A stretch of DNA of 20,074 nt from a virus, in IMG/VR virus record IMGVR_UViG_3300019752_000027, positions 1-20,074 of that record, one strand, 5' to 3'. Numbering within the stretch: position 1 is the stretch's first letter; every line of letters starts with the position of its first letter. This document shows, piece by piece, positions 4,206 to 13,536 of the stretch. The notes under the pieces are model-generated. The model was not told where the DNA came from and did no database searches. It saw only the letters and a program-made list of their open reading frames with translations. The position numbers and the translations under genes were made by a program.

Positions 4206-4240
4206 AAAGCCCCACTTGTTAGGTGGGGCTTTCTTTTTAT
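4206..4240 (+). terminator. Strong intrinsic terminator after the tail tube gene
   Basis: Ten-base arms AAAGCCCCAC (4206-4215) and GTGGGGCTTT (4223-4232) enclose a 7-base loop and are followed by CTTTTTAT. The pyrimidine tail is on the + side, so it mainly ends the head/tail-tube transcript. The other side is A-rich and may also weakly stop the reverse-strand gene ending at 4237. Its core resembles the terminator at 6116-6146. Confidence 0.85.
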
Positions 4241-4434
4241 TTTAAAACATTAATAATAAATTTATGGAATTCTTCTGACTGTTTTGCAAAAGGTTGACAT
4301 ATTTTAACATGAGGGGTATCCATTTTAAGGTTACCTTGCTTGTTCTGGATAGCAACCATCCAATCAGCCGTAGTGATTATTTCTTTAACTTTAGGATTAT
4401 ATTTCCTAACTAGCTTCTCTGCTTCTTTTACCAT
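4237..4434 (-). CDS. Small hypothetical protein of first reverse-strand cassette
   Basis: A 65-residue basic, soluble protein, probably helix plus strand (KEAEKLVRKYNPKVKEI then ADWMVAIQNKQ). I do not recognise a family. It is the only start available in this frame, since a stop lies two codons upstream. Its orientation, its position 50 bases after the 4485-5255 gene and the shared promoter at 5279-5309 suggest a two-gene operon. A real gene is more likely than chance because it fills the space between the upstream gene and the terminator with a low-complexity-free sequence, but this is not certain. Confidence 0.5.
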   Translation of the reverse strand: MVKEAEKLVRKYNPKVKEIITTADWMVAIQNKQGNLKMDTPHVKICQPFAKQSEEFHKFIINVLK

Positions 4435-4484
4435 AATATCTTATTTTATCGGTTTACTTTTTGTTATTTCTATTCTCATATTTC

Positions 4485-5255
4485 TTATTTTAAAATTACT
4501 CCGCAAGGTGTGCCATTTTTGAAAGTATAGTCTCTTAACAATGCCTCATAGCTTATTGTACCATCGTGAACATATACGTCTTTACTATTGCAGCTAACTA
4601 CATATAGCCCTTCTTTAATTATTTTAGATATTATCCAGTTATTGTTTACTTCTATAAACTCCTCCATAGTGAAAGGTCTATACTTAGCCGCATGCTCTTT
4701 AATGTACTTCTCGGCACTTTCTTTTGTCATTATTTCAGACCTTACGTCTTCAATAGCCGTATATGTTTCAATATATATATTTCCTATATTGCAATGATAA
4801 ATCTTATAATCCTTAAAAGAAAACATCCAAACGATATCACCCTCAAAAAACTCCTCACCAAGAGAATTAACAAACAAAGGCTTAGGCTTATTATCAGCCT
4901 CCCATTGTTTTATTGTTTTGCAGTGCATAAATGCACAAATAACTCCCCTTTCATCTAATGCTACAATAGGATAATTATTCGTACGTCGAGGATTTGTGGA
5001 TAAATCAGCAAACACATCTAGCTTTATAGCATCCTTTTCACTAACATCCCAAACATACATATAATTAGGCTCTTGCTCCTGTTTTGCAAGTTTGAATCTT
5101 CTTTTTTTGTATTGACCAACAAACTTACCATCCTTCGTGACTCCTATATGAAAATCACCAACAGACTCAACTTCATATTTATTACCAAGTTCTAGATCAC
5201 AACCTACTACCTCAACACACTCAACTAAATCACCTTCTTTAAATTTATTTTCCAT
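4485..5255 (-). CDS. Hypothetical protein with SH3-like N-terminal domain (first cassette)
   Basis: A 256-residue soluble protein. Residues 1-56 form a compact beta unit of a kind found in many small Bacteroidota phage proteins (KFKEGDLVECVEVV, NKYEVESVGDFHIGV, ending RRFKL), which I read as an SH3/KOW-like barrel. A second, similar 'EFFEGDIVWMF' module starts near residue 137, followed by a helix with TKESAEKYIKEHA. No catalytic motif is seen. It lacks a signal peptide and membrane segments, so it probably acts in the cytoplasm. The start at 5255 is chosen because it lies 24 bases downstream of a Bacteroidota -7 box inside the 100-bp repeat. It is oriented against the tail genes, so it behaves like a moron; function unknown. 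Confidence 0.7.
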   Translation of the reverse strand: MENKFKEGDLVECVEVVGCDLELGNKYEVESVGDFHIGVTKDGKFVGQYKKRRFKLAKQEQEPNYMYVWDVSEKDAIKLDVFADLSTNPRRTNNYPIVALDERGVICAFMHCKTIKQWEADNKPKPLFVNSLGEEFFEGDIVWMFSFKDYKIYHCNIGNIYIETYTAIEDVRSEIMTKESAEKYIKEHAAKYRPFTMEEFIEVNNNWIISKIIKEGLYVVSCNSKDVYVHDGTISYEALLRDYTFKNGTPCGVILK

Positions 5256-5366: not shown

Positions 5367-5882
5367 ATGAGTGAAGAAATCAAAAGAGAAGCTGACATAA
5401 GAGCGCAGCAATTACAGATAGCATTATTAGAGGATAGGTCTTTCCCTACTAAAATAGGCAAGAAAACATATAAGTGCAAATATCTTAACAGTTGGACGCA
5501 AAGAAAGATTACTAATGTACTGTTAAAAGCAGAAGCTATTGATGAAAACGGAGGAATAGAAAACGTATTCAAAGCCGTAAACAAAAGTGGAACATTAGCA
5601 CCAAAAGTAGTATCGTATCTAATATTAAGACATCCAATAAAAGTCAAGCTATTTCACTGGTTATTCTGGCGCTATTTAGACATGACAACAAACTCTAGGG
5701 ATTTATACGATCCACTACTAAAGGCTCTTAAAGCGGCTGATGTTAATTTTTTTTTGACCAATATGGGATTGATGTCGGAAATAGTAATGACGAGGAAGAT
5801 ATGGACAGCGAAGGAAGTTGCAGCGATCCAAGCAAGTCAGAAATTGGGGCACGAGCAGGGTGGTGTAAAGAGTTCGGAATAA
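5367..5882 (+). CDS. Tail assembly chaperone, short form (gpG-like)
   Basis: A 171-residue product, the expected G-type tail chaperone by its place between tail tube and tape measure. The first 128 residues are mainly helical and charged (SEEIKREADIRAQQLQ; YLNSWTQRKITNVLLKAEA; HPIKVKLFHWLFWRYLDM), consistent with a protein that coats the unfolded tape measure before tube growth. At codons 127-130 (Asn-Phe-Phe-Leu) the message has a T9 run where ribosomes can slip -1. Without slipping, the frame continues 41 more codons with a high proportion of G at third positions, unlike neighbouring genes, so this tail may be loosely constrained. The slipped product is described in the next entry. Confidence 0.7.
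   Translation: MSEEIKREADIRAQQLQIALLEDRSFPTKIGKKTYKCKYLNSWTQRKITNVLLKAEAIDENGGIENVFKAVNKSGTLAPKVVSYLILRHPIKVKLFHWLFWRYLDMTTNSRDLYDPLLKALKAADVNFFLTNMGLMSEIVMTRKIWTAKEVAAIQASQKLGHEQGGVKSSE
5747..5756 (+). promoter_or_regulatory. Probable -1 ribosomal frameshift site (T9G slippery run)
   Basis: In the chaperone frame the codons are AAT TTT TTT TTG, so both U UUU UUU and U UUU UUG heptamers are present in the correct register for tandem -1 slippage. The last stop in the -1 frame ends at 5746, immediately before the run, and this frame then stays open to 6109. Such a site between overlapping chaperone frames just before a tape measure is the classical lambda G/GT arrangement. No strong downstream stem was evident by eye. 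Confidence 0.75.
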
Positions 5883-6109
5883 CCACTAAAGAATACGATA
5901 TGATGCCTATTGCTTTAAGACTCATAATAGGACAAGACTTGCCTAGTATAAAAACTAAGGAGAAGAAAAACAAGCCTAAAGAAACAATTAAAGTAATAGA
6001 TTATAATAAAAAACTAGGGGAGAAGATAAAAGCTGAAATGGCTAAGAAAGCCGAATTAGAAAAGATTAATTCTGAGATAAATTCTGACATGAAAGAAGCT
6101 AAGGGGTAA
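5747..6109 (+). CDS. Tail assembly chaperone, T-like extension made by -1 frameshift
   Basis: This frame has no credible independent start: its first ATG (5801) has no leader spacing typical of these genes, and the sequence before it reads sensibly right back to the T9 run (FDQYGIDVGNSNDEED). A slipped ribosome would make about 247 residues: 130 from the first frame plus 117 here. The extension has an acidic Ser/Asn/Glu linker, then a compact helical unit (WCKEFGITTKEYDMMPIALRLIIGQD) like the C-terminal modules of other frameshifted chaperones, and a Lys/Glu-rich tail. Third-position base use is A/T-rich, like the rest of the window, which favours this frame being the selected one over 5756-5880. 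It would bridge tape measure and tube subunits. Confidence 0.7.
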   Translation, partial: FFFDQYGIDVGNSNDEEDMDSEGSCSDPSKSEIGARAGWCKEFGITTKEYDMMPIALRLIIGQDLPSIKTKEKKNKPKETIKVIDYNKKLGEKIKAEMAKKAELEKINSEINSDMKEAKG

Positions 6110-6115
6110 TGATTT

Positions 6116-6150
6116 AACCCCACCTTTTTGAGGTGGGGTTTTCTTTTATT
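6116..6150 (+). terminator. Strong intrinsic terminator after the chaperone gene
   Basis: The nine-base arms AACCCCACC (6116-6124) and GGTGGGGTT (6132-6140) enclose a 7-base loop and are followed by TTCTTTTATT. It lies 7 bases after the chaperone stop and abuts the end of the converging antirepressor gene. The CCCCAC/GTGGGG core is shared with the terminator at 4206-4240, so both reverse cassettes begin next to the same kind of hairpin. Confidence 0.85.
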
Positions 6151-6775
6151 CATAATATCTACTTGTCAACCAATCTTGCCCTTTAGGTGTAATTAAGGTT
6201 TGCTGACTAATTATAGACTTATCCTCACGAACGTTTATAACTTTTTCAATAACTTCAAAATATTTTAAATCCATATATTTCTGATAAGGATTGTTCTTTT
6301 GTCTTCCTTGACTAATAAAAACCTTATCTTTTCTAAGTTGGCTAAAAAGCTTGTTTTGTCCCCAGTTAATCATCTTAGCAAACTGCCCCACTGAAATAGA
6401 AACATCAGACTGCATTAATTTATCATGCAACTCTACTTTAGGTTGCTGTTCTAACAATTTAGCTCTATCTTTTTTCCATCCATCTAGTAATCTCTGAATA
6501 TTGTTGGGATCTGAAAAATCCACTGCTATTGATAAATAACCTCCATTCTTTCTGATTGACTTAAGAATGTGTTTTACTTCTTTTTTAAACTGTTTTGCCA
6601 TCGGTTTTCTTGATTGCATCAAAGCTTCATATAAACCATCTTCTGTCAGCATGGTTACTTTTCTATTTTGACCTCCTACACAAATTGTGTGTATCAGCTT
6701 TTCTTCACCATCAACCTTACGAGTAACGGCATACCCATCTCTTTCTTCTAACAAATCGGCTACGTCTTTAGCCAA
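6146..6775 (-). CDS. Phage antirepressor, main part: rest of BRO-N plus KilA-C/ANT domain (5' end frameshifted)
   Basis: Residues 1-75 (AKDVADLLEERDGYAVTR, LTEDGLYEALMQSRKPMAKQF, LKSIRKNGGYL) are the body of a BRO-N domain, the N-terminal DNA/protein-binding module of phage antirepressors. Residues about 118-205 (SISVGQFAKMIN, NKLFSQLRKDKVF, NPYQKYMDLKYFEVI, then TLITPKGQDWL) fit the ANT/KilA-C domain. No ATG is available: the frame can start only at the TTG at 6775, in the middle of the domain, and the missing N-terminus is encoded just upstream in the +1-related frame (6760-6867). A one-base loss in a T run at 6774-6777 explains this. Restored, the protein would be about 240 residues, normal for the family. 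Such proteins relieve repression by binding a prophage repressor. Finding it inside tail genes on the opposite strand is unusual. Confidence 0.8.
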   Translation of the reverse strand: MAKDVADLLEERDGYAVTRKVDGEEKLIHTICVGGQNRKVTMLTEDGLYEALMQSRKPMAKQFKKEVKHILKSIRKNGGYLSIAVDFSDPNNIQRLLDGWKKDRAKLLEQQPKVELHDKLMQSDVSISVGQFAKMINWGQNKLFSQLRKDKVFISQGRQKNNPYQKYMDLKYFEVIEKVINVREDKSIISQQTLITPKGQDWLTSRYYE

Positions 6776-6885: not shown

Positions 6886-7446
6886 TTACCAATACATTTC
6901 TACATTAACATCTCTATACACCTCTTCGCTATTCTCATCATCTTTAAGACTAAAATGAGCCTTGCCTTTTGTTGAGTTAAAAGCTACATCATTACTAGTT
7001 CCAGCGCTTACAAAATAACGAATATCAGGTTCATGCAAAAACTCCCCTATCGGCATAAGCGTAGTATTATCATACCTTCTCTCCCATTCTTGATTAAAAT
7101 CTAAAATACACTCAATATCAGTATTTTCCTCATTAGGGTAAGTAAAAATAATTTCTTTTATAGGAAAACTATACTCATAAGAGGAGTACCACTGTCGATA
7201 ATTTGTTATTATTCCAAAATTATTAATCTGAAAAGAATCTTTATTTACGATTGAGGGTACATGAAGATTAATTTTACATTTATAATCTCCTACTCTGAAT
7301 TTTTCTCCCAATGGAGGGAGGTTTAAAGTTGCTCCCCTTACATCTTCTATTTTAGCTTGTAACTCTAAAACTTCTTTTTTTAGCTTTTTAATCATTACAC
7401 CTTGCATCATTAGTAGATTTTTGATATCTATTATTTGATTTTCCAT
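6886..7446 (-). CDS. Hypothetical protein with N-terminal coiled coil (second cassette)
   Basis: A 186-residue protein with no family that I recognise. Residues 1-38 are a strong amphipathic helix with heptad spacing (MENQIIDIKNLLMMQG, KKLKKEVLELQAKI), likely to oligomerise. The remainder is predicted beta-rich, with many aromatic residues (FGIITNYRQWYSSYEYSF; HFSLKDDENSEEVYRDVNVEMYW). No signal peptide or membrane segment is seen. It starts within the 100-bp repeat, 24 bases from a consensus -7 box, and ends 18 bases before the antirepressor start, so both are probably co-transcribed. A structural or host-interaction role is possible, but nothing in the sequence fixes it. Confidence 0.65.
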   Translation of the reverse strand: MENQIIDIKNLLMMQGVMIKKLKKEVLELQAKIEDVRGATLNLPPLGEKFRVGDYKCKINLHVPSIVNKDSFQINNFGIITNYRQWYSSYEYSFPIKEIIFTYPNEENTDIECILDFNQEWERRYDNTTLMPIGEFLHEPDIRYFVSAGTSNDVAFNSTKGKAHFSLKDDENSEEVYRDVNVEMYW

Positions 7447-7599: not shown

Positions 7600-10500
7600 A
7601 TGGCAGATAAAATTGGCGAACTTGAATACGACCTACGAGTATCGGATGAACAGTTTGAGAAAGACCTTAAAAAGCTTAATGAAAAGCTAAAAAAACATGG
7701 TGCACAGATGGAGAAATCTTTAACCATTTCTGCTAAGACAAACATAACAGCAGCTACAAAGCAACTACAAGGACAATTTCAAGAAAGTATTAAAGGAATA
7801 GGGAGGACTAATGATGGTCTTAAGTCCATGAATGCTTACTATAAGGATTTGGAGAAAACATCCAAAGCGGCTGCTAAGAGTACCGAAAAAGCTTCTAGGC
7901 TAGAAACGGCGGCGCTTAAAAAAGAGGCTCAAATGGCTATTAAGGCTGAATCTGCTATTAATAGAAAAATCAGACTAAGAGATAAAGCTATTACTGCTGC
8001 CGAAAGAGCCACCAAAGCCGAAGAAAGAGCTAATGCAGCGGCGGCTAAAAAAGTCTCTAATATAAATAAAGCTAATTCAGCATATAAAAAACAGAGCTTA
8101 TATTTACAAAATATTCGTACTGCGGCGGCTTCTTACGTCTCTTTATTTGCGGCTGTAGGAATACTTAATAACATAAGAAGGGTAACAGGTGAATTTGAAC
8201 TACAAAATAAAGCATTAGCAGCGATAATTCAAAACAAAGATAAAGCAGATCAACTTTTTGCTCAAGTGACAGATTTAGCACTAGAATCACCTTTCGGAAT
8301 ACGAGAGCTTCTTTCTTACACTAAACAGTTAGCAGCTTACAGAATAGAGAGTGAAGAATTAATACCTACACTTACAAAACTTGCTGATGTATCTGCTGGT
8401 CTTGGCGTGGATATGAATAGACTAATATTAGCTTATGGTCAGGTTCGTGCAGCTTCCGTTTTGAGAGGGTGTTTCGGATTAAATACTCCTGTATTAAAGA
8501 TAGATAAAACGGTTATACCTGTTCAAGATATTAAAAAGGGAGATGTATTAATAGGTGATGACAACACGAATAGAAACGTTCTCGAAACAATAAAAGGTCG
8601 TGAGCAAATGTATTGGATTAAACAGTCTAATGCAGATAATTACAGAGTAAATCATAATCACATAATGACACTTCTTAAGGATGGTCAATTAGTAGATATT
8701 TATCTTTATGAATTATTAAACAAGGATATTTCTGAATACAAAGGAGTAAATGCTATTAACGGAAATATTTCAGACATTGAGATAGAAAAAGATACTATTG
8801 ATGATTATTATGGCTTTGTTATAGATGGCAATAAAAGATTTTTATTGGGTGATGGTTCTATTGCGCATAATACAGAATTAAGACAATTCACAGAGGCTGG
8901 AATACCAATGGTAGCCTTACTTGCAGACAAATTCACAGAGCTTGAAGGGACTGCTGTCTCTACCGCTGATGTGTTTGATAGAATATCAAATAGAGCCGTT
9001 TCTTTTAAGGTTGTTTCTGAGATTTTTAATGACATGACAGCTAAGGGCGGAACATTTTTTGAAGCTCAAAAAGTACAAGCTGAGACATTATACGGTATGT
9101 GGAATATCTTAGGAGATGCTATGGATAAAATGTATAACCAAATAGGTCAGGCTAACTTAGGTGTTCTTAAAGATGGTGTAAAAGGAGCTATTGACTTAGC
9201 TCGTAATTGGGAAACAGTTGTTGATGTTTTAAAAGCTGCCGTTTTGACGTTTGGAGCTTACAAAACTGCCATGATGGTTAATTTGGTTATCAGGAAAAGC
9301 CTAAGAAATATGACCCTTTCCGAGATTCAAGCCTTAAAAGCTGCGGACGCAATACAGAAGAAAAGAATAATTACAATGAACTTAGCTAGCGTGGCAGGTA
9401 AAAAGCTAACTGGAGTTATGAAAAAACTATATGCTATTAAAGGAACTCTTGCTATTGCTGGGTTTGCTTTATTGGCTGAATATTTATATACATCATATGA
9501 AAATTCTCAAAAATTAACAAGAGAACTAGATAAACTAGCTTCCGAAGGTGTTGTCAAAGTAGGGGATTTAGTATCCAACTTTAAAGAATTAGCCAAAGCT
9601 GCACTGGAAGCAAATGATGGATCTAACAATCAAAGAGAGGCTATAGCTGAACTTAAGAGAACATATAAAGACTATCTTCCTATGCAGAAATTTACCATTG
9701 AAAATCTTAAAGAGATGAGTGGTAATTATGACTCTGTAACAGAAGCTATCAATAGAAAAGTGGAAGCTCAAATTAAAGAAAAGACACAAACAGCTATTGA
9801 TACTGAATTTAATGAGAAAAAACAAGATGCTCTTGGGACTATATCAGAGAGCTTAGTAGGGTTTCCTGTAAAAGGAGGGACTGAAAAACTTACGCAAAAA
9901 CAAGCTGCGTTTATAGCAAAAACATTTAGAAATCAATTAGAAAGTGAACTTAAAAAGGGATTAGATACAAATCCTTATGGTATATTACTACAAACTATTG
10001 AAGAGTTTGATTATGCTGGAAGTGCTAATGCTAGAATACAATACGGTTTTGACGAGGTTAGAAGAAGCACATATGCGTACAGAGACGCATTGCAAGAGTT
10101 AAGCAAAGCAGAATCAGACAGAGATACAAAACTAGATGCTGCTTTTGGATTTACAGATGTAAGAGCTAAAGATTTCAAAGCACTTACTAAAATAAGTGAA
10201 GATTACGAAAAAACTATTAGAGAGATAAACGCCAAACCATTAACTGATGATGCCTTTCAGGTGGAGACGCTCGAAGCTAAGAAAGATAAACTTAAAAACA
10301 TCATTTCTTATTATACTGAATTAGCCAATAAAGCTGATGGTTTTGATAAGAAGTTATTTGAGAAAGATAAGGTTAAACAATACACACAAGAGTTAAACAA
10401 ACTAACAGTAAACATAAAATCTTACGCTAAAGAAGTAAATGACATAATAAAAGCTAATCAGGGAGATACTACTTTTGGTCAAGTTTTTGCTGTAGGGGAA

Positions 10501-13500
10501 GATGAAGATCCGATAGAACATGGCAAAAAAACAGCAAAAGCTTATAAAGAACTAATATTAGACATTAAAGCTACAGAGGGTATAATAAAAGGACTTAAAG
10601 ATGGTGGTGAGGATATATTAGCGCAAACCAAAATACTGAAAATACTAGAAATTAAAAGCGTGGTGGCAAAAGCTATTATTGACGCTATGAATACCTCTCT
10701 ATCTAAAAATGGAGCTAAAAGCGATGGGAATATATCTAACTTACGTGCTGAATTAGATTTACTTAAGAAGATTAAAAAATCTCGTGAGGATTTAAGTAAA
10801 ATAATGACAACTGAAGATGTTGAAGCTAATATTCAAAAGTTGTTTGGTGGTCAAGCTAAAGATTTAAACATCAAAATTCCTATATCTTCTGACTCTTCTG
10901 CTTTTTATGAGCAACTGGAAAACCTAGCTGTTAGAGCTGAGAATTTAGGAGGGAAAGCTGGCATATCATGGGCTAAAGGGTTGCGTAACCAAATAGGCAC
11001 TATGCAAGTTGACGACATAAAAGAAACTGCTATTAGAGCTTTGAAAGCATTAGATATTGAAGTAGCTAAATATAAAGGAAAGTATAAATTCTACAAGGAT
11101 GTATTAGGAATTACTGGCAATGATGAATTAGCTGTAAAATTAGCTTTCGAAGGTACTGAATCAGCAACAAACTTTATTGATACGCTTAAGAAGAAGATAG
11201 AAGATTTAGCTCATAGTGGTGATTTCAATATAAATCCTAACTTAGATTTCGAAGGTATTAAAAAACTTGACAATCTTCCCGAAAAACTAGCTAAAGCCAT
11301 TAAGAAAGTAGACGATACAATAACAAAAGAGTCAACAAATACTCTTCTTAAGAGATTAAAGTTTCTGGAAACAAAAACTCCAGAAGGAATGGGATTAGCA
11401 TTTGATTTTTCTGATGTTATTACAGACACATCCAAATCGGCTGCCAAGATAAGAAGAGAGATAGAAAGTATAGTTAAAGACGCTAGTAAACAAGATATTA
11501 CTAGAATAAATCAGATTGGAGATTTACAATTAAAAAGCATATCAGAGCAAGCAAGACAACGAATTGAAAAAATGGGGGCTGCTTATACTAAAGAAAGGAT
11601 TGAAATTGCTGGACTTGGAGAATCTTATAGTAATATGACTAATGCTTCTTTAACTGACATAAACAAAATAATAGAATTAATAAAGAAGGGACAACAAGAT
11701 TTACTTAGTGGTGAAGGTTTACAAAACATGATAAATAGCCTAAAACTAGATTCAGATGTTTCTGACAGCTTGTTTGGCGATATTTTCAATTCTTCCAACA
11801 TAGATGATTTTGTTTCAAAAGTCAACGATTTAGAAGTGGAGATGAAAAATGCCAGCAATGTAAAAATAGGAACTAAAGTTGTATCAGAGGAACAAATACT
11901 AAAAATACAGGAATTTATCACGCTTCTTAAAGCTATGGGATTAGCGAATAAAAACGCTTTAGATACAACTACCGAGAAAAAAATAAAGAAACAAATAGCT
12001 GAATGGAGACAATTTAACAACTCACTGACAGATGTTATAGGTACTGTTAGAGACTTAGGGTCTACAATGGGTGAGAGCCTATCAGAAGAAGGAGAAAGAG
12101 CCTTAAATGCGATACAAGGAGTATCAACTGGCATAATGACAGCTATTTCAGAAACCAGTAAACTAGCCGTAGACGGAATAAGTGCCGTGGAAAAAGCTTC
12201 TGTTATCCTAGCTGTAATAAGCGCTTCATTAAAAATAATACAAGGAATAAGTGAAGCTATAGATACGCTTAATAACAAAGACATAACTGCACAACAAGAA
12301 CAAACAAAGCAAGTAGCTGACCGTATAAATATGGAGATGGCTATAAATAAAATAATTAGAGACAGAAACAAACTACAAGAAGAAAGTATTATTTTAGGCA
12401 AAGATGCTGGAAAATCTATGGGAGAAGCCTTTAGTTTAATGGATGAAAGTACTGCTGAATTTGATGAAGCAATAAAATCACTTTCTGAAAATGCTATTTT
12501 TAGTGATGAGGAATCTTGGAGAAACTTATGGGGATTTGGATCTAAAAGAAGCAAGGAATTTAGTTTTTCCATAAAAGATATTCTTGGGGAAAAAGGCTCT
12601 GGAGGAGGATCTGTATTAGACTGGTGGTTTACAGGTGTTTTTGATAAACTAGACTTGTTTGGGAAAGCTGGAAAAGGAGAAGCTAAAGGGAAAGCTTATG
12701 AGAGTATAATAAATACAATGAAAGAATCTCTTGGAGCTATCGGTAAAACAACAGAAGATTTACTAGATATGTCGTCTGCTGAATGGTTGGATTTCTTTAG
12801 ATTAATGAAAGAAGGAGGCAAAATAACCGACGAAGCAACATTAGGCTTAATAGCAAATGCAGAGGAAGCTCAGGCTAAATATGCTGAAGCTATGGAGAAT
12901 GTTAAAGAGATAATATTGAGCATTACTGGTGATTTAGGAAATCAACTAGGAGATACCTTAGCAGATGCTTTCGAAAGAGGTATAGATGGAGCTGAGGAGT
13001 TTAAGCATGTTGTGGAAGGAATGATAGAAGATCTCTTAAAAAAACAGTTAGTAAACACATTGTTTAAGAAAGATTTTGACGCACTAGAGAAACAAATGCA
13101 AGATTCCATGAGAATAGGTGGTGATGGAAGTTGGATAGATGATATTGAGACTTTCTTTACTAATATAGAAGGCAAAAGTGAAGAAGCTAACAAGTTATTC
13201 GAACAATTCAGAAGAGAAGGTAAAGCTAAAGGTTTCGATTTGTTCGGAGGAGATGGCGGTGATTTAGGTAACCTAGCTAAGGGAATTACTGGCGTTACAG
13301 AAGATACTGCTAGGGAATTAGCTGGAATGCTAAACAGTATCAGAGAAAGCGTTATTCTTCAAGGTGCAGATATAAAACACATAAGCGGAACTCTTAATAA
13401 TATGTATATCATACAAGGGCAAAGTTTAACTAATTTAATCGAGATAAACCAAAACACAGGAGCTATGAAAAATGCCATTGAATCTGTTTTAGGACAAGGA

Positions 13501-13536
13501 AGTAAAGGTACAGCAATCAAAGTAATAATAGAATAA
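7600..13536 (+). CDS. Tail tape measure protein interrupted by a mini-intein
   Basis: The 1978-codon frame is by far the longest gene and follows the chaperones, as expected for the protein that sets tail length. The N-terminus (residues 1-190) is charged and coiled coil (EYDLRVSDEQFEKDLKKLNE; Ala/Lys/Glu-rich repeats). Residues 190-290 and 425-530 form the conserved tape-measure domain (ELQNKALAAIIQNKDKAD; LALESPFGIRELLSYTKQLAAY; LRG joined to TELRQFTEAGIPMVALLAD; GGTFFEAQ; LYGMWNILGDAMDKMYNQIG). Hydrophobic segments occur near residues 546-564, 616-630 and 1533-1550, as expected for a protein injected through membranes. Most of 640-1480 is helical. Removing the intein (291-424) leaves 1844 residues, which at about 1.5 angstrom per residue implies a tail of roughly 275 nm. 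The ATG at 7600 lies 17 bases after a terminator-like hairpin. Confidence 0.92.
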   Translation: MADKIGELEYDLRVSDEQFEKDLKKLNEKLKKHGAQMEKSLTISAKTNITAATKQLQGQFQESIKGIGRTNDGLKSMNAYYKDLEKTSKAAAKSTEKASRLETAALKKEAQMAIKAESAINRKIRLRDKAITAAERATKAEERANAAAAKKVSNINKANSAYKKQSLYLQNIRTAAASYVSLFAAVGILNNIRRVTGEFELQNKALAAIIQNKDKADQLFAQVTDLALESPFGIRELLSYTKQLAAYRIESEELIPTLTKLADVSAGLGVDMNRLILAYGQVRAASVLRGCFGLNTPVLKIDKTVIPVQDIKKGDVLIGDDNTNRNVLETIKGREQMYWIKQSNADNYRVNHNHIMTLLKDGQLVDIYLYELLNKDISEYKGVNAINGNISDIEIEKDTIDDYYGFVIDGNKRFLLGDGSIAHNTELRQFTEAGIPMVALLADKFTELEGTAVSTADVFDRISNRAVSFKVVSEIFNDMTAKGGTFFEAQKVQAETLYGMWNILGDAMDKMYNQIGQANLGVLKDGVKGAIDLARNWETVVDVLKAAVLTFGAYKTAMMVNLVIRKSLRNMTLSEIQALKAADAIQKKRIITMNLASVAGKKLTGVMKKLYAIKGTLAIAGFALLAEYLYTSYENSQKLTRELDKLASEGVVKVGDLVSNFKELAKAALEANDGSNNQREAIAELKRTYKDYLPMQKFTIENLKEMSGNYDSVTEAINRKVEAQIKEKTQTAIDTEFNEKKQDALGTISESLVGFPVKGGTEKLTQKQAAFIAKTFRNQLESELKKGLDTNPYGILLQTIEEFDYAGSANARIQYGFDEVRRSTYAYRDALQELSKAESDRDTKLDAAFGFTDVRAKDFKALTKISEDYEKTIREINAKPLTDDAFQVETLEAKKDKLKNIISYYTELANKADGFDKKLFEKDKVKQYTQELNKLTVNIKSYAKEVNDIIKANQGDTTFGQVFAVGEDEDPIEHGKKTAKAYKELILDIKATEGIIKGLKDGGEDILAQTKILKILEIKSVVAKAIIDAMNTSLSKNGAKSDGNISNLRAELDLLKKIKKSREDLSKIMTTEDVEANIQKLFGGQAKDLNIKIPISSDSSAFYEQLENLAVRAENLGGKAGISWAKGLRNQIGTMQVDDIKETAIRALKALDIEVAKYKGKYKFYKDVLGITGNDELAVKLAFEGTESATNFIDTLKKKIEDLAHSGDFNINPNLDFEGIKKLDNLPEKLAKAIKKVDDTITKESTNTLLKRLKFLETKTPEGMGLAFDFSDVITDTSKSAAKIRREIESIVKDASKQDITRINQIGDLQLKSISEQARQRIEKMGAAYTKERIEIAGLGESYSNMTNASLTDINKIIELIKKGQQDLLSGEGLQNMINSLKLDSDVSDSLFGDIFNSSNIDDFVSKVNDLEVEMKNASNVKIGTKVVSEEQILKIQEFITLLKAMGLANKNALDTTTEKKIKKQIAEWRQFNNSLTDVIGTVRDLGSTMGESLSEEGERALNAIQGVSTGIMTAISETSKLAVDGISAVEKASVILAVISASLKIIQGISEAIDTLNNKDITAQQEQTKQVADRINMEMAINKIIRDRNKLQEESIILGKDAGKSMGEAFSLMDESTAEFDEAIKSLSENAIFSDEESWRNLWGFGSKRSKEFSFSIKDILGEKGSGGGSVLDWWFTGVFDKLDLFGKAGKGEAKGKAYESIINTMKESLGAIGKTTEDLLDMSSAEWLDFFRLMKEGGKITDEATLGLIANAEEAQAKYAEAMENVKEIILSITGDLGNQLGDTLADAFERGIDGAEEFKHVVEGMIEDLLKKQLVNTLFKKDFDALEKQMQDSMRIGGDGSWIDDIETFFTNIEGKSEEANKLFEQFRREGKAKGFDLFGGDGGDLGNLAKGITGVTEDTARELAGMLNSIRESVILQGADIKHISGTLNNMYIIQGQSLTNLIEINQNTGAMKNAIESVLGQGSKGTAIKVIIE
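8470..8871 (+). other. Mini-intein (134 residues) in the tape measure protein
   Basis: Residues 291-424 of the tape measure frame carry the landmarks of a splicing intein. Block A starts with Cys291 (CFGLNTPVL, then PVQDIKKGDVLIG). Block B is YRVNHNHIMTL, with His354 in the key position but Asn351 where Thr of TxxH is usual. Block F is DYYGFVIDGNKRFLLGDG. Block G is SIAHN ending in His423-Asn424, followed by Thr425 as the first C-extein residue. The upstream residue is Gly290. Joining the flanks restores LRG-TELRQFTEAG, a conserved tape-measure motif. Only about 48 residues separate blocks B and F and no LAGLIDADG, HNH or GIY-YIG motif is seen, so no homing endonuclease is present. Splicing itself is inferred. 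Confidence 0.93.

What the first reader, a model, noticed from the sequence alone, without database searches (positions are those of the whole stretch)
8470..8871. Mini-intein inside the conserved domain of a tape measure protein
The sequence shows a complete 134-residue intein-like block: Cys at its first position, a block A of CFGLNTPVL type, a block F with YYGF-VIDGN, a C-terminal His-Asn, and Thr as the next residue. It is inserted between Gly290 and Thr425 so that removal restores LRG-TELRQFTEAG, a conserved tape-measure motif. Inteins usually sit in replication or packaging enzymes; a structural ruler protein is an uncommon host. Splicing would gate tail assembly: an unspliced ruler would be longer and its folded domain could not thread into the tube. 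A conditional (for example redox or temperature sensitive) splicing step would make this a switch on virion production.
Basis: partly seen in the sequence, partly recalled or inferred. Interest (0 to 1): 0.9.

Follow-up and report, generated by a model that had tools for sequence, protein, structure and literature searches.

The report
Self-splicing mini-intein in phage tail ruler
A phage gene for the protein that sets tail length is interrupted by a small self-cutting protein element (an intein); relatives without it show the exact insertion point, and inteins of the same family have invaded this same short stretch of the tail ruler at least twice, which no paper I could find describes.

Summary
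Residues 291-424 (window 8470-8871, +) of a 1978-aa tape measure protein (TMP) are a mini-intein. Pfam Hom_end_hint scores E 5.5e-12. AlphaFold2 (pLDDT 97.9) matches the Prp8 intein at 1.3 A over 133 residues (Z 22.3). C1, the block-B His, His133-Asn134 and Thr+1 are present. C1 is the only cysteine in the ORF. Seventy distinct homologous TMP sequences run straight through the junction, so the boundaries are exact.

New here: the family normally sits in P-loop ATPases and helicases (GK^T), usually with a LAGLIDADG endonuclease. A second TMP (L002) has a sister intein at the same site, but the two host TMPs are not sisters (AU p 3e-6), so the intein moved sideways or was lost repeatedly. TMPs of Ruegeria phages and of L194 and L195 carry a separate clade four residues away in the same motif. 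TMP was therefore invaded at least twice. I found no paper reporting a TMP intein.

Most likely this is a selfish element that lost its endonuclease and must splice for a functional TMP. Splicing itself is inferred, not shown.

The parts
7600..13536 (+). Tape measure protein gene; 1978-aa precursor, 1844 aa after predicted splicing
   Evidence: ORF; phrog_9959 tape measure E 6.5e-63; TMP homologues in Bacteroidota phages
7600..8469 (+). N-extein (residues 1-290), ending ...GQVRAASVLRG
   Evidence: continuous alignment of 70 distinct intein-free homologue sequences across the junction
8470..8871 (+). Mini-intein, 134 aa (residues 291-424), no homing endonuclease domain
   Evidence: PF05203 E 5.5e-12; AF2 pLDDT 97.9 and Prp8 intein match Z 22.3
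8470..8496 (+). Block A, CFGLNTPVL; Cys1 is the predicted first nucleophile and the only Cys of the ORF
   Evidence: alignment A3
8641..8661 (+). Block B, YRVNHNH; His64 catalytic candidate (family form N-x-x-H in place of T-x-x-H)
   Evidence: N61 and H64 nearly invariant in the 62-sequence alignment
8806..8853 (+). Block F, YYGFVIDGNKRFLLGD
   Evidence: G115, F116, D119 invariant in the 62-sequence alignment
8857..8871 (+). Block G, SIAHN; penultimate His133 and terminal Asn134 for cyclisation
   Evidence: H133 and N134 invariant in the 62-sequence alignment
8872..8874 (+). +1 extein Thr (second nucleophile)
   Evidence: family census of +1: T 58, S 8, C 1; intein-free TMP homologues mostly Q
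8872..13533 (+). C-extein (residues 425-1978), beginning TELRQFTEAGIPMV

Best explanation
A class 1 mini-intein of the Hom_end_hint (Prp8/PI-SceI-like) family sits in the conserved N-terminal domain of a tape measure protein of a siphophage related to Bacteroidota phages. Expected route (inferred from the residues, not shown): Cys291 makes an N-S acyl shift, Thr425 attacks to form the branched ester, Asn424 cyclises with help from His423, and LRG is joined to TELRQFTEAG, giving an 1844-aa ruler plus a free 134-aa intein. It probably derives from an endonuclease-bearing intein of P-loop ATPases, reached TMP, spread sideways at this site while it could still home, and has since lost its endonuclease. 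It is kept because the ruler is presumably essential, and only continued splicing or a precise deletion leaves it functional.
For: Pfam, PDB sequence and fold matches. All seven columns invariant in the 62-sequence family alignment are kept, and departures at near-invariant columns are conservative. Exact splice boundaries shown by 70 distinct intein-free homologue sequences. Only one Cys in the ORF, at C1; the same holds in L002. The junction lies in the most conserved 16-residue stretch of the aligned TMP region, in a loop between two predicted helices. The sister intein L002 is at the same site (clade 100/94), but the host TMPs are not sisters (AU p 2.8e-6). Relatives are mostly at GK^T/S or G^TGK P-loop sites, most of them 330-366 aa with a LAGLIDADG-type insert.
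Against: No splicing assay, virion proteomics or reads were available. The tree of short intein sequences is weakly resolved outside the starred forks. Shared ancestry with many losses fits the incongruence as well as horizontal movement does. The window is a 20-kb fragment, so a trans-acting endonuclease elsewhere in the genome cannot be excluded.
Confidence: 0.92

Rival explanations
1. The intein is a post-translational switch on tail assembly: splicing is delayed or blocked by a cue (oxidant, metal, temperature), so tails form only when conditions suit.
For: The fold-nearest intein, Prp8 of Cryptococcus, is inhibited by copper through C1 oxidation and by zinc (PMC6805012). The site is at the heart of the TMP N-terminal domain. 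TMP was invaded repeatedly.
Against: No partner Cys exists in the whole TMP, so an intramolecular disulfide trap is excluded. Related TMPs lack the intein, so no conserved regulatory role is visible. There is no direct evidence.
Confidence: 0.08
2. A Hint-fold remnant that no longer splices and stays in the virion as an extra domain, or only cleaves (BIL-like).
For: No activity data; the endonuclease has already been lost, so some decay has occurred.
Against: The catalytic residues and Thr+1 are kept, and the reading frame is open through 1978 aa. A retained Hint fold inside the most conserved TMP stretch would very probably break the ruler. Both site-a TMPs carry Thr+1 although intein-free relatives mostly carry Gln.
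Confidence: 0.06
3. A normal domain of this TMP family and not an insert.
For: None beyond the open frame.
Against: 70 distinct homologous sequences lack it with no gap at the junction.
Confidence: 0.01

Closest known systems
Prp8 intein (Cryptococcus gattii and C. neoformans; PDB 6mwy, 6mx6)
   Same: Closest solved structure, Z 22.3, 1.3 A over 133 residues, 29% identity; C1, HN end; also a mini-intein
   Different: Host is the spliceosome core protein; block B is T-x-x-H preceded by C61, here V60 followed by N-x-x-H
Phage P-loop ATPase, helicase and terminase inteins with LAGLIDADG (e.g. L113, L118, L123, L125, L003, L005)
   Same: Same family: about 40-50% identity to the window intein, HN^T ends
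   Different: Sit in Walker A motifs (GK^T) and usually carry the endonuclease; the window one does not
Inteins in TMPs of Ruegeria phages DSS3-P1/V18 (L107) and viral contigs L194, L195
   Same: Mini-inteins in the same conserved TMP motif; the Ruegeria genes are annotated only as tape measure protein
   Different: Separate intein clade (99/89) with a helicase intein as sister, inserted 4 residues upstream
TMP split by a homing endonuclease with transcript splicing in Vibrio phage ICP1 (PMC10448857)
   Same: A mobile element interrupts a tape measure gene
   Different: Removed at the RNA level, not by protein splicing

Membership tests
Intein (class 1, cis-splicing) | Hint fold | tested here: met
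   AF2 pLDDT 97.9; 93 chains at Z >= 5, led by inteins
Intein (class 1, cis-splicing) | Nucleophile Cys/Ser at position 1 | tested here: met
   C291, the only Cys of the ORF
Intein (class 1, cis-splicing) | Block B His | tested here: met
   H64 aligned with the family's nearly invariant H
Intein (class 1, cis-splicing) | C-terminal His-Asn and +1 Cys/Ser/Thr | tested here: met
   H133 N134 then Thr425
Intein (class 1, cis-splicing) | In-frame insertion whose removal restores the host protein | tested here: met
   70 distinct homologue sequences continuous at the junction
Intein (class 1, cis-splicing) | Self-splicing activity | not testable with these tools
   needs expression or virion proteomics
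Mobile (homing) intein | Homing endonuclease domain | tested here: not met
   134 aa, only a ~45-aa linker between blocks B and F; relatives of ~330-366 aa have a LAGLIDADG-type insert there; Pfam found no endonuclease in the ten other window ORFs scanned
Pfam PF05203 Hom_end_hint | Score above the curated cut-off | tested here: met
   46.6 bits against 32.1
Redox-gated intein by intramolecular disulfide | Second Cys in intein or extein | tested here: not met
   single Cys in 1978 aa

The most novel reading that the evidence does not exclude
The conserved N-terminal loop of tape measure proteins is a recurrent intein landing site in unrelated tailed phages, and splicing there acts as a checkpoint that holds back tail assembly (for example through oxidation of the lone Cys1 in a phage of an anaerobic host). 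The first half is supported here; the checkpoint half is not excluded.
Probability: 0.08. Interest if true: 0.85.

Novelty: new member of a known kind. Interest (0 to 1): 0.5.

Why it matters
Inteins are usually explained by their liking for active sites of replication and packaging enzymes. Here a non-enzymatic structural ruler has been invaded at least twice, at two positions four residues apart in a highly conserved motif. This suggests that conserved sequence and essentiality matter more than catalysis, and it points to a critical but uncharacterised loop of tape measure proteins. Ruegeria phage DSS3-P1 and its relatives have a cultured host, so splicing in a virion structural protein can be tested directly. 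The Ruegeria records annotate the gene without an intein, which overestimates the mature ruler by 139 residues (134 in the window).

Tried and rejected
Normal TMP domain: rejected by 70 distinct intein-free homologue sequences. Disulfide redox switch: rejected, one Cys only. Search for closer intein-bearing TMPs: a degenerate HN^[TSC] junction pattern over 2.9 million viral contigs found only the L002 contig and over genome contigs found none; the A1 search of genome contigs found none. NCBIfam gave nothing for the intein. Literature: 44 papers hold both 'intein' and 'tape measure' (30 listed; seven of them opened and searched within), and none of those opened describes an intein in a TMP; the mycobacteriophage intein survey has no mention of tape measure. 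The library is open-access only, and Novikova 2016 is not held. No paper linking intein and DSS3-P1 was found. dN/dS between the window and L002 was not attempted, since at about 50% protein identity it would be saturated. The fold of TMP residues 151-600 with the intein gave low confidence over the intein (pLDDT mostly under 60), so only the flanking helices are used from it.

Full report
OBSERVATION. The window is a 20,074-base virus record, probably a fragment. The ORF at 7600-13536 (+) encodes 1978 aa and is a tape measure protein: phrog_9959 E 6.5e-63, with homologues among Parabacteroides, Bacteroides and Riemerella phages. Its neighbours fit a siphophage late region: major capsid (phrog_29, 1040-2137), tail genes, and an overlapping pair that looks like tail chaperones before the TMP.

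IDENTITY. The 134 residues match Pfam Hom_end_hint at E 5.5e-12, above the curated cut-off, and Cryptococcus Prp8 inteins at E 5e-11 by plain sequence. AlphaFold2 with a 62-sequence alignment gave pLDDT 97.9 and pTM 0.89. Foldseek and VIA-align place it with the Prp8 intein (E 5e-13; Z 22.3, 1.3 A over 133 residues), then PI-SceI, gp41-1 and other inteins. In the alignment the invariant columns are T6, G43, G115, F116, D119, H133 and N134, and the window has them all. The near-invariant C1, N61 and H64 are also present; departures such as M28I, G55A, T130S and V131I are conservative. The splicing mechanism is therefore inferred to be class 1: C1, block-B His, HN and Thr+1 are present, but activity is not shown.

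BOUNDARIES. A spliced query was compared with all fetched loci. Apart from the window itself and L002, the homologous loci that cover the junction aligned straight through it, 70 distinct sequences in all. MAFFT placed no residues in the intein columns for 45 of 46 homologues, the exception being L002. The +1 residue is Gln in most intein-free homologues, and Thr without an intein was seen only in L040, L056, L057 and L086. The junction falls in the most conserved 16-residue stretch of the aligned region. In a model of residues 151-600 the flanks are two well-predicted helices (about residues 272-285 and 427-432), so the insertion is in the loop between them; the intein part of that model is poor.

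CYSTEINE. The full 1978-aa protein has a single Cys, C291 = C1. L002 has a single Cys at the same place, and 11 of 16 sampled intein-free homologues have none. This fits a cysteine kept for catalysis, and it excludes an intramolecular disulfide trap. It does not exclude C1 oxidation or metal binding: in the Prp8 intein, copper inhibits through C1 without needing C61 (PMC6805012), and the window has Val at that second position.

ORIGIN AND SPREAD. A census of 67 distinct relatives in viral contigs shows lengths of 133-156 aa (8 of them) or 274-366 aa (mostly 330-366, with an endonuclease-type insert), +1 residues T 58, S 8, C 1, and hosts that are, judged by the flanking motifs, overwhelmingly P-loop ATPases, helicases and terminases cut at GK^T/S or G^TGK. 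L002 (IMGVR_UViG_2529293266_000006) carries a 133-aa intein at the identical TMP position, 48% identical. The two site-a inteins are sisters (100/94), yet the host TMPs are not: L002's TMP pairs with intein-free L045, the window's groups with other intein-free TMPs, and forcing them together is rejected (AU p 2.8e-6). Sideways transfer at a fixed site, or an old intein lost many times, both fit.

A SECOND TMP SITE. Ruegeria phages DSS3-P1, V7, V11 and V18 have a 139-aa intein in genes annotated only as tape measure protein. A pattern scan for HN^[S/T]..EELR.QLG found L194 and L195, with full inteins in TMPs, and L196, a contig-end fragment that is only suggestive. L107 (Ruegeria), L194 and L195 form one clade (99/89) whose sister is the helicase intein L128, far from the window. 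Profile comparison of the exteins aligns the two TMP families (E 8.5e-8) and puts the two sites four residues apart in the same motif. TMP was therefore invaded at least twice.

WHAT IT DOES. Most likely it is a selfish element, now without its endonuclease, that persists because splicing is needed for a working ruler. The argument that an unspliced ruler would be longer is weak, since the insert is a compact Hint fold; that it would spoil tail assembly is a reasonable inference.

LITERATURE. Known phage inteins lie in terminases, ribonucleotide reductases and other enzymes (PMC3556154, PMC5050341, PMC8228797), and one minor head protein is recorded (PMC7468147). TMP genes broken by an intron/endonuclease are known in ICP1 (PMC10448857). 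No paper found in the held library describes a TMP intein; subscription papers are not covered.

Noticed in passing
L107, L194, L195, L196; Ruegeria phage DSS3-P1 NC_025428 26067-31301: Inteins at a second TMP site four residues upstream, in genes annotated only as tape measure protein in the Ruegeria records; a separate intein clade related to a helicase intein (L128). L196 is only a C-terminal fragment at a contig end.
   Followed up: yes
5367-6109 (+): Two overlapping ORFs in -1 relation with a T-run at 5747-5755, likely the programmed frameshift of the tail assembly chaperones before the TMP gene.
   Followed up: partly
6146-6775 (-): BRO-N/KilAC antirepressor gene on the opposite strand inside the tail gene cluster, between the tail chaperones and the TMP gene.
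   Followed up: partly
4237-5255 (-) and 6886-7446 (-): Further opposite-strand ORFs of unknown function breaking the late gene block; no Pfam match.
   Followed up: no
L106 (MT835760.1, human fecal phage): 135-aa mini-intein of the same family in what looks like a terminase large subunit; record unannotated.
   Followed up: partly
L040, L056, L057, L086: Intein-free TMPs with Thr at the +1 position, possible empty target sites or scars of intein loss.
   Followed up: partly
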